A stretch of DNA of 64,000 nt from Candidatus Heimdallarchaeota archaeon (GTDB lineage Archaea > Asgardarchaeota > Heimdallarchaeia > JABLTI01): positions 1-64,000 of the forward strand of contig DXJV01000006.1 in NCBI GenBank assembly GCA_019056785.1, written 5' to 3'. The notes below the pieces were generated by a model that worked only from the letters and a program-made list of their open reading frames with translations, was not told the DNA's origin and made no database searches. Positions 1,483-60,951 of this stretch are shown piece after piece. The position numbers and the translations under genes are program-made. The number at the start of each line of letters is the position of its first letter. The stretch's first letter is position 1.

Positions 1483-2013
1483 TTAGCCCTCCTTTAATTG
1501 CTCAAAAAACCATTTGAAGCTTTCGAAGATATTTTGCCCTGTTTTTGCCGAGGTTTCATAGCAAGCCCATTTAAAGGGAAGGTCTACCAAACCGAATTCT
1601 TGAATGAACCTGCTTCGATCCATGCCCTCAGGTAAGTCTGCTTTGTGCAATAAAACAAGAACAATCACATCGTCGTGGATTTGGTGTTCGACGATTTCTT
1701 GGAATGCTTTATAAGCCTCCTCAAATTTCATGACATCATTTTTATCAACAACAAAAACCACACCATCTGATTTTTCATTTACTTCCGGCCAGAGAACTCT
1801 GAAATCATCTTGTCCGCCCATGTCCCAAATGTTTATTTCGAGTTTTTCTATTCGAATGGTTTCTCCACGATTTATCCCCATTGTTGGCTGTGTTTTTACA
1901 AATTCACCTGTCTCGAGATATTTCACAATGGTAGTTTTTCCTGCATTTGCTAGCCCACAAAGAGTGATATTTACCTCTTTTTTTCGTTTGAATATTTTTC
2001 TAAAAAATGACAA
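1483..2013 (-). CDS. Arf/Sar-like small GTPase
   Basis: P-loop GLANAGKT, switch II WDMGGQDDFR, LHKAD (G4-like), TSA (G5). Confidence 0.9.
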   Translation of the reverse strand: MSFFRKIFKRKKEVNITLCGLANAGKTTIVKYLETGEFVKTQPTMGINRGETIRIEKLEINIWDMGGQDDFRVLWPEVNEKSDGVVFVVDKNDVMKFEEAYKAFQEIVEHQIHDDVIVLVLLHKADLPEGMDRSRFIQEFGLVDLPFKWACYETSAKTGQNIFESFKWFFEQLKEG

Positions 2014-13924: not shown

Positions 13925-14063
13925 GGGCCGGTAGATCAGACTGGAAGATCGCCTGCTTGGCAATTAGGCGGCGAGCTGCCGTTTCTAACCTTAATGCAGG
14001 AGGCCCCGAGTTCAATAGGCTGTTGCTTCGGCACTTCCTGGACACATCTCGGCCGGTCCACCA
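13925..14063 (+). tRNA. tRNA-Ala(GGC) with two introns (13963-13994 and 14016-14045)
   Basis: exons GGGCCGGTAGATCAGACTGGAAGATCGCCTGCTTGGCA / TGCAGGAGGCCCCGAGTTCAA / ATCTCGGCCGGTCCACCA form a complete cloverleaf with G3:U70 and encoded CCA. Confidence 0.88.
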
Positions 14064-19649: not shown

Positions 19650-20342
19650 TTGACAGTTGCAGAGCTCCTTCGGGAGGGTAAAGTTGCTCGTTTGCTAAAA
19701 ATTACCGTTCTTGGTACCTCTGGTAGTGGTAAGACATCCTTTTTGCGAGCTCTGTTTGGGGATGAGTTCATCACTTCTGATGTTAAACGACAAGATTATC
19801 TCGAGAATAAAGCCAATCTTACTTATACGCCGATTGATGTTGAAGAATCAACCACTACTCTTAGTTTGAACCAACTTGGTGCGATGGTCATTTTCACGAA
19901 GAGCAATCAATTTGAAGTTCTCAAAATACAGGATGGTGTTGATAATCTGCTCACGAGAGAGGATATTGATTATTTCATGACGTTCTCAATTTTTGATACT
20001 GCTGGTCAAGAACGGTTTGAGTTTATGGCTGATATTTGTCTAAAGGGTTCTGATGCAGTTATTTTAGTTGCTGATGGTACCAATGTCTCTTCCATCGAAT
20101 ACTTGAATGTCTACATCGAGAAGATAAAAGATGAAGAACTTCGGACCGGCAAAGAAATTCCTGTGATAATTTTCATGAACAAGCAAGATCTCAGCAAGAA
20201 AGGAATCTATTTGGGTGCCGATGTTGCTCGCACAGCCACAAGAAACGAATACGAAGTTTTTGAGACAACTATTAAAGACAAGGACTCTTTCATCCTACCC
20301 TTGCGGATTTTAATTAGCAGGTTAAATGCGCTTTCGTTTTGA
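19650..20342 (+). CDS. Ras/Rab-like small GTPase
   Basis: GTSGSGKTS, FDTAGQERF, MNKQD; TTG start with upstream GGAG. Confidence 0.88.
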   Translation: MTVAELLREGKVARLLKITVLGTSGSGKTSFLRALFGDEFITSDVKRQDYLENKANLTYTPIDVEESTTTLSLNQLGAMVIFTKSNQFEVLKIQDGVDNLLTREDIDYFMTFSIFDTAGQERFEFMADICLKGSDAVILVADGTNVSSIEYLNVYIEKIKDEELRTGKEIPVIIFMNKQDLSKKGIYLGADVARTATRNEYEVFETTIKDKDSFILPLRILISRLNALSF

Positions 20343-59343: not shown

Positions 59344-60951
59344 TCAAAAGCCGGCTTTAGATCCTTCGGAGAGAACACGCAAATTACAGAAAGTAGTAAG
59401 AAAGTATCTAATAGTACTATTTTTCAAGTATTTACCGGTCAACTGAACTGCAAAGTGTTTTTGAATTTTAGCTAAGAATGAGGGGTCAGTAGACTTGATT
59501 AATATAGCCTTCTGATAAAAAACCATTTGTTTAATGATTCGTCTTAGCGTTGCAGATGGTTGTAAATCTAATCTTACGGGTATTGATTTATATTTGCGAA
59601 AACGAATGGTGCTTACTTGTTTGGTAAGGAAAGAGAGGAGCGATTCGTTTTTTATCTTGAGCAGTTTAGATAAAATTCCAATAGCAATAGCACTTTTCCC
59701 ATGTTCAAGTTGCTGAAGAAAGCTGGGTGTAATGCCCAATTTCTTTGCAAAACTAACAAGGGTGGCATTTCCTCGACTGAGCCGAAGGTAGCTACCTAAA
59801 CCGGTTATTTGCATCTCTTTTAAAAGGTGAAAATTGAAATAGCCATGAATAATGGCTTCTTTTTTAAAATCCACAAAAACTCTTGGTTGTGTTGGATTCT
59901 TCGTTTTCCCTTCTCTCAACTTTAGGAAGTCTTTGACTTTTTCAGGATGATAACAAAGCATCTTGTCTTTGTAATTTTGATGGTACTTTCTTGGAATATA
60001 AACTTGATACGTATTATCCCCCCTTTTCTTAAAAGACGATTGAATGTTTTGGTCTAAAAGGAAATGAACAAAGTCTTGAGCAAATTTCTCGCTAGCACTT
60101 GCTAAGATAACTCTATTTTGAGTATAACTCCCGTCTGTATCCATAACACCGGACCAATAAGCCGAACGCAAAGAAGCGTTACCCCGATAAAGGAGAGGTT
60201 CACGCAAGGTGGCATATTTCTTTCCACTAATAGGTTGCCCTGTAAGAAAGGAGAAGAGTCGTACTACCCAAAGATTAGTGATAATAAGTGTTGGGCAGTT
60301 TTCCGTTTGTTGTTGGATTCTTCCATGCAGTTTGAATAGTCGAGTAAAACGTTCTTGGAGCTGCTGAATATTCGTCAATGAAAAATCGACAATGTTCAAG
60401 ATATATTTCGACAAACTTCCATCCCCATTGATAACCCCACAAAGGTAAGCAAGCTCAGGTGTGAGGGTCGATGGCAGAGTAAATAGCTCACCGCGGGCAG
60501 ATTCGAAAAGCCTGTCTCGGAGGAAGGGGGAGGAAGGAGATGGTAAGCACCGGAGAAATGGCAATGGTACTGCACCGCGCTCTTTGAGATAATGGCGTAG
60601 CAACGACCGCCATTCCAGAATTCTGCGATCAATTGAAAAATAGAAATAGTTTCGCAATCGTTCAGCAACGAGGAGCTCATATCGTTCGAACACTTCCCGC
60701 TCCTCAGTGGTAAGCCGGAGAAACGGAAAGCGCGCCAGTACCCTGTCAGAAGCCTTTCGCCGAAGAAAATCGTTCCGTCGGATCATAATTGGGTAGAGAT
60801 TAAGAATTTCACCATCGGCAATGAAAACTTCTTTCTTACGTCCCGATTCTAATAATTCATTTGCATTTAGCCATTGGTTTGATTCTTTTGGATGAACATC
60901 AAAGAGAAGGGGGTCCTTCTGCCAAGATAGAACCGGCAAAATACTTAACAC
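59344..60951 (-). CDS. free-standing LAGLIDADG endonuclease with HTH domain
   Basis: 'LCGVINGDGSL' and 'YWSGVMDTDGSY' motifs; 'VSFAKKLGITPSFLQQLEHGKSAIAIGILSKLL' HTH. Confidence 0.85.
   Translation of the reverse strand: MLSILPVLSWQKDPLLFDVHPKESNQWLNANELLESGRKKEVFIADGEILNLYPIMIRRNDFLRRKASDRVLARFPFLRLTTEEREVFERYELLVAERLRNYFYFSIDRRILEWRSLLRHYLKERGAVPLPFLRCLPSPSSPFLRDRLFESARGELFTLPSTLTPELAYLCGVINGDGSLSKYILNIVDFSLTNIQQLQERFTRLFKLHGRIQQQTENCPTLIITNLWVVRLFSFLTGQPISGKKYATLREPLLYRGNASLRSAYWSGVMDTDGSYTQNRVILASASEKFAQDFVHFLLDQNIQSSFKKRGDNTYQVYIPRKYHQNYKDKMLCYHPEKVKDFLKLREGKTKNPTQPRVFVDFKKEAIIHGYFNFHLLKEMQITGLGSYLRLSRGNATLVSFAKKLGITPSFLQQLEHGKSAIAIGILSKLLKIKNESLLSFLTKQVSTIRFRKYKSIPVRLDLQPSATLRRIIKQMVFYQKAILIKSTDPSFLAKIQKHFAVQLTGKYLKNSTIRYFLTTFCNLRVLSEGSKAGF

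What the first reader, a model, noticed from the sequence alone, without database searches (positions are those of the whole stretch)
13925..14063. tRNA-Ala(GGC) with two introns, one in the T-loop
Seen: removing 13963-13994 (37/38) and 14016-14045 (58/59) gives a perfect cloverleaf. The T-loop junction folds as GTTC/GGAC (one wobble) between 3-nt bulges AA|T and AC|A, so the cuts fall exactly at the predicted exon ends. Family knowledge: non-canonical-position tRNA introns need a broad-specificity splicing endonuclease and are best known from Thermoproteota-type archaea.
Basis: partly seen in the sequence, partly recalled or inferred. Interest (0 to 1): 0.78.

Follow-up and report, generated by a model that had tools for sequence, protein, structure and literature searches.

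The report
Two-intron alanine tRNA in Heimdallarchaeon
This is a real alanine tRNA gene of an uncultured Heimdallarchaeon (an Asgard archaeon, the group closest to eukaryotes) broken by two small introns, one of them in the unusual T-loop; such introns are known from other archaea, and the genome also encodes the two-subunit enzyme type known to remove them.

Summary
Removing 13963-13994 (37/38) and 14016-14045 (58/59) leaves a 77-nt tRNA-Ala(GGC) with encoded CCA and the alanine identity pair G3·U70. Intronless or single-intron orthologs in related genomes match the spliced exons at 66-72 of 77 positions, and two have exactly the same T arm (CCGAG-TTCAAAT-CTCGG). ARAGORN and Rfam miss the unspliced gene. 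It is the only tRNA-Ala(GGC) found in the 82.5%-complete assembly.

The host is an Asgard archaeon (Ca. Heimdallarchaeota). The trait is not isolated: eight further tRNA genes of this genome have introns outside 37/38 (53/54 in Ala-UGC and Cys; D-loop in Asn, Gln and others). The genome encodes a catalytic EndA alpha subunit with the lysine loop (RKPK) that gives Aeropyrum pernix EndA its broad specificity, a second EndA without the catalytic histidine (beta type), and RtcB ligase.

Refinements: the T-loop bulge-helix-bulge is relaxed rather than strict, and the 37/38 junction has only 2 of 4 central pairs. Same-genus orthologs lack the T-loop intron, so it was probably gained recently. T-loop introns, and multi-intron tRNAs in two other Asgard lineages, are published. 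New member of a known kind. Splicing itself is inferred.

The parts
13925..13962 (+). Exon 1 of tRNA-Ala(GGC): acceptor 5' strand, D arm, anticodon arm to A37; anticodon GGC at 13959-13961
   Evidence: 88-98% identical over 38-48 nt to tRNA-Ala genes of same-genus relatives; ARAGORN on spliced form
13963..13994 (+). Intron 1, 32 nt, position 37/38 (36/37 gives the same product)
   Evidence: Absent from intronless orthologs; same position occupied by 30-31 nt introns in three same-genus orthologs L031, L035, L038. Central helix only GG/CC, 2 of 4
13995..14015 (+). Exon 2: anticodon stem 3' strand, variable loop, T-stem 5' strand, T54 T55 C56 A57 A58
14016..14045 (+). Intron 2, 30 nt, in the T-loop at position 58/59; unambiguous cut
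   Evidence: Absent from all orthologs seen, including five of the same genus; BHB at both cuts
14046..14063 (+). Exon 3: A59 T60, T-stem 3' strand, acceptor 3' strand, discriminator A73, encoded CCA
14010..14043 (+). Bulge-helix-bulge of the T-loop junction: central helix 14010-14013/14040-14043, bulges 14014-14016 and 14044-14046 (to 14048 if the T stem is the outer helix), inner helix 14017-14019/14037-14039
   Evidence: Pairs listed; shuffles

Best explanation
This is the genome's working tRNA-Ala(GGC) gene, transcribed as a precursor (139 nt between the mature ends) with two archaeal BHB-type introns. A heterotetrameric (alpha-beta)2 EndA cuts both introns out at bulge-helix-bulge or relaxed junctions, its lysine loop allowing the junction in the T-loop as well as the weak one at 37/38; RtcB joins the exons. 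The mature tRNA reads GCC and GCU. Shown here: gene anatomy, orthologs without the inserts, presence of alpha, beta and RtcB genes, conserved catalytic and loop residues. Inferred: transcription, cleavage at the predicted sites, ligation, assembly of the enzyme as (alpha-beta)2. The T-loop intron was probably gained within this lineage.
For: Spliced product is a full cloverleaf called Ala(GGC) with G3·U70, A73 and CCA (read directly). Orthologs: L055 and L058 (identical 77-mers) are intronless and match 72 of 77 with identical T arm; same-genus orthologs compared match 66-68 of 77 and lack the T-loop insert. Only copy found, while GCC and GCT make up 447 of 896 alanine codons in long window ORFs. 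Other tRNAs of the genome need introns at 53/54 or 15/16, each with 4 of 4 central pairs at the deduced cuts, and give clean tRNAs when spliced. EndA alpha: E=3e-41 to A. pernix EndA alpha, with Tyr/His/Lys triad and RKPK aligned to K44-P45-R46; the loop Lys and Pro are invariant in 81 of 81 alpha subunits from Asgard and related archaea. EndA beta without catalytic His. RtcB at E=1e-175. The role of the CSL lysine: PMC6379350, PMC12397907.
Against: No RNA data. The isolated T arm folds better with the T stem intact than as the BHB by 3.3 kcal/mol, and the 37/38 junction has 2 of 4 central pairs, so enzyme-induced folding must be assumed. The assembly is 82.5% complete, so a second Ala(GGC) copy could be missing. 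Flanking genes are not conserved next to the orthologs.
Confidence: 0.93

Rival explanations
1. The locus is a decayed tRNA-Ala pseudogene: a small insertion in the T-loop has killed it, and another gene supplies tRNA-Ala(GGC).
For: No expression data; assembly incomplete; same-genus orthologs lack the insert.
Against: All stems intact after splicing, including T stem and encoded CCA; no other copy found; insert carries BHB at exactly the exon ends; several other tRNAs of this genome have the same kind of insert.
Confidence: 0.04
2. The 30-nt insert stays in the RNA as a retained T-loop extension of an unusual mature tRNA, only intron 1 being removed.
For: The insert forms a hairpin on top of an intact T stem in the minimum-energy fold of the arm.
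Against: The T-loop binds the D-loop in ordinary elongator tRNAs; interrupting it at 58/59 should break that contact (established knowledge). BHB fits the exon ends; 53/54 inserts in Ala(UGC) and Cys have perfect 4-bp central helices.
Confidence: 0.02
3. Assembly chimera or binning error: the contig or the EndA contigs do not belong to the same organism.
For: Bin contamination 4%.
Against: A window protein (CofD-like by my reading) is 50-57% identical to same-genus genomes and at most 46% to others of the class; EndA alpha is 66-76% identical to the nearest Heimdallarchaeota; alpha plus beta EndA are present in nearly all genomes of the class searched.
Confidence: 0.02

Closest known systems
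Non-canonical BHB introns of Thermoproteota tRNA genes (e.g. Pyrobaculum; positions 53/54, 56/57, 59/60; PMC4090602, PMC3218864)
   Same: Short introns at BHB or relaxed BHB junctions, in the T arm, several per gene, with an (alpha-beta)2 EndA
   Different: Here in an Asgard archaeon, at 58/59, a position not named in the partial list I could read (the list ends in 'etc.')
tRNA introns of Atabeyarchaeia and Freyarchaeia (Asgard; PMC11291895)
   Same: Asgard archaea; multiple and non-canonical introns
   Different: There 92-95% of tRNA genes have introns; here about 13 of 34 tRNA genes seen have none. Different class (Heimdallarchaeia); the enzyme was not linked in the passages read
Aeropyrum pernix (alpha-beta)2 EndA with Crenarchaea-specific loop (PDB 3P1Z; PMC6379350, PMC12397907)
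   Same: Catalytic triad, K-P-K/R loop, separate beta subunit
   Different: Host lineage; activity untested

Membership tests
Archaeal BHB tRNA intron (non-canonical position) | Removal restores a tRNA that relatives encode without interruption | tested here: met
Archaeal BHB tRNA intron (non-canonical position) | 4-bp central helix with cuts two bases into each bulge, strict or relaxed | tested here: met
   58/59: 4 of 4 with one wobble, outer side relaxed; 37/38: 2 of 4, relaxed only
Archaeal BHB tRNA intron (non-canonical position) | Excision in vivo | not testable with these tools
   No RNA data
(alpha-beta)2 EndA with Crenarchaea-specific loop | Catalytic alpha with Tyr/His/Lys triad | tested here: met
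(alpha-beta)2 EndA with Crenarchaea-specific loop | Loop with Lys followed by Pro and a basic residue | tested here: met
   RKPK aligned to K44-P45-R46 of A. pernix; Lys and Pro in 81 of 81
(alpha-beta)2 EndA with Crenarchaea-specific loop | Separate structural beta subunit lacking catalytic residues | tested here: met
   Catalytic His replaced in the second gene
(alpha-beta)2 EndA with Crenarchaea-specific loop | Heterotetramer that cuts relaxed junctions | not testable with these tools
   Needs purified protein and RNA substrate

The most novel reading that the evidence does not exclude
The broad-specificity lysine loop called Crenarchaea-specific is a general trait of Asgard and related archaea and so was present in the archaeal parent of eukaryotes, where it allowed tRNA introns at many places, including T-loop position 58/59; the eukaryotic TSEN loop, described as convergent (PMC12397907), would then have to be re-examined as a possible descendant or replacement of it.
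Probability: 0.35. Interest if true: 0.6.

Novelty: new member of a known kind. Interest (0 to 1): 0.38.

Why it matters
It shows that interrupted tRNAs at unusual places also occur in Heimdallarchaeia, the Asgard class nearest to eukaryotes, and ties them to an EndA carrying the broad-specificity loop. It also explains why automatic annotation misses tRNAs in these genomes: several tRNAs absent by standard search here turn out to be present but interrupted, so tRNA-based completeness or codon-reading claims for such genomes can be wrong.

Tried and rejected
Looked for conserved flanking genes next to tRNA-Ala(GGC) orthologs: none useful. Looked for the T-loop intron in 58 related genomes by DNA similarity: only the 5' exon or uninterrupted T arms matched among those examined, no second case. 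Considered a 12-nt variable-loop intron in L024 (Ala-UGC): rejected, because the anticodon-stem 3' strand TTCCGA occurs twice and the second copy gives a clean tRNA with two introns only. Phe (L171), Gln-CTG (L173) and Ser-GGA (L176) appear to have D-arm inserts, but their exact cuts were not resolved. Papers on the loop by Hirata 2011 and Kaneta 2018 are not held, so whether Asgard loops were noted before is unknown.

Full report
What is there. The bases 13925-14063 are a tRNA-Ala(GGC) gene with two inserts. Removing 13963-13994 and 14016-14045 gives a 77-nt tRNA with complete acceptor (7 of 7 pairs, with G3·U70, the alanine identity pair), D, anticodon and T stems, discriminator A73 and encoded CCA. 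ARAGORN recognises the spliced form, and the form that keeps intron 1, but not the form that keeps the T-loop insert; neither ARAGORN nor Rfam finds the genomic version. The gene stands alone between a PolX-like DNA polymerase/PHP gene and an ATP-grasp gene, in an A/T-rich spacer with T-runs after the CCA.

Why it is not chance. In 58 related genomes the 5' exon finds tRNA-Ala genes. The intronless tRNA-Ala(GGC) L055 (another family of the same class) matches the spliced product at 72 of 77 positions and has exactly the T arm CCGAG-TTCAAAT-CTCGG that splicing at 58/59 restores; L058 has the same sequence. Same-genus orthologs L031, L035 and L038 have a 30-31-nt intron at 37/38 and no T-loop insert; L036 and L177 have no intron. 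So intron 1 sits at a site used across the genus, and intron 2 is so far particular to this lineage, most simply a recent gain.

The splice junctions. At the T-loop junction GTTC (14010-14013) pairs with GGAC (14040-14043), with one G·U, and AGG/CCT continues into the intron; both cuts fall two bases into the bulges, as the BHB rule requires. Shuffled introns give the central helix at these cuts in 2.4% and both helices in 0.12%. It is therefore a relaxed BHB. The 37/38 junction is weaker still: 2 of 4 central pairs.

The rest of the genome. The host genome (102 contigs, 82.5% complete) yields 27 tRNAs over the Rfam cut-off and several weak matches that are interrupted tRNAs. Deduced non-canonical introns with 4 of 4 central pairs: 53/54 in Ala(UGC) and Cys(GCA), and 15/16 in the D-loop of Asn(GUU) and two Gln(UUG) genes; their spliced forms are clean tRNAs. 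Phe(GAA), Gln(CUG) and Ser(GGA) also appear to have D-arm inserts whose cuts I did not settle. Of 34 tRNA genes seen, about 13 have no intron, 12 one at the canonical site only, and 9 a non-canonical one (my count). Same-genus genomes also have D-loop inserts in Asn (L192), Phe (L193, L199) and a Leu tRNA (L191) (read by eye), so the habit is older than this T-loop intron. No other tRNA-Ala(GGC) was found, while GCC and GCT are half of the alanine codons.

The enzyme. The genome has two EndA genes. The first (L028:1474-2064, minus strand) matches A. pernix EndA alpha over nearly its whole length (E=3e-41), with the Tyr/His/Lys triad, and its RKPK aligns with K44-P45-R46 of the Crenarchaea-specific loop. 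Published work shows that inserting this loop into a narrow EndA gives broad specificity and that the lysine is needed (PMC6379350), and that the lysine is typically followed by proline or valine and then a basic residue (PMC12397907). The second gene (L029:1177-1800) lacks the catalytic histidine, as a beta subunit would, and weakly but above cut-off matches eukaryotic Sen15. Nearly all of the 58 genomes searched have two EndA genes. Among 81 alpha subunits, mostly from many Asgard lineages, the loop Lys and Pro are invariant; the search patterns lay outside the loop, though the best-80 limit favours close relatives. RtcB ligase is present.

Identity of the host. The nearest EndA alphas belong to Ca. 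Heimdallarchaeota MAGs such as 12F4_9 and CSMAG_1263; a window protein is closest to the same genus, so contig and bin agree.

How it most likely works. The precursor is cut by (alpha-beta)2 EndA at both junctions and joined by RtcB; the lysine loop permits relaxed junctions. Anatomy, orthologs and genes are shown; transcription, cutting and joining are inferred.

Compared with what is known. T-arm introns (53/54, 56/57, 59/60) and multi-intron tRNAs are published for Thermoproteota (PMC4090602; PMC3218864). In Asgard archaea, Atabeyarchaeia and Freyarchaeia have introns in 92-95% of tRNA genes, often multiple and non-canonical (PMC11291895). I found no paper in the held library on Heimdallarchaeia tRNA introns, which is weak evidence of absence. 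So this is a new member of a known kind. The side result, the loop shared by Asgard alpha subunits, may matter more, because a 2025 paper treats the eukaryotic, ARMAN and crenarchaeal loops as independently acquired.

Noticed in passing
L028:1474-2064 (-) and L089-L168: The Crenarchaea-specific loop motif (K-P then usually K/R) of EndA alpha is invariant for K and P in 81 sequences, most of them Asgard, so the loop is not crenarchaea-specific.
   Followed up: partly
L029:1177-1800 (+): The Heimdallarchaeal EndA beta subunit matches the eukaryotic Sen15 family above Pfam's cut-off (25.3 against 22 bits).
   Followed up: no
L024, L169, L027, L170, L171, L173, L174, L176: Further tRNA genes of the same genome with non-canonical introns: 53/54 in Ala(UGC) and Cys, 15/16 in Asn and Gln(UUG), unresolved D-arm inserts in Phe, Gln(CUG), Ser(GGA).
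   Followed up: partly
L170 and L174: Two different tRNA genes both read as Gln(UUG) after splicing; unusual for an archaeon, one could come from contamination or be misread.
   Followed up: no
window 59344-60951 (-): 535-aa protein with LAGLIDADG and HTH domains; may be a free-standing homing endonuclease or a remnant of an intein or intron.
   Followed up: no
window 1483-2013 (-) and 19650-20342 (+): Small GTPase genes (the second matches Ras/Roc families; the first judged by eye), typical of Asgard genomes.
   Followed up: no
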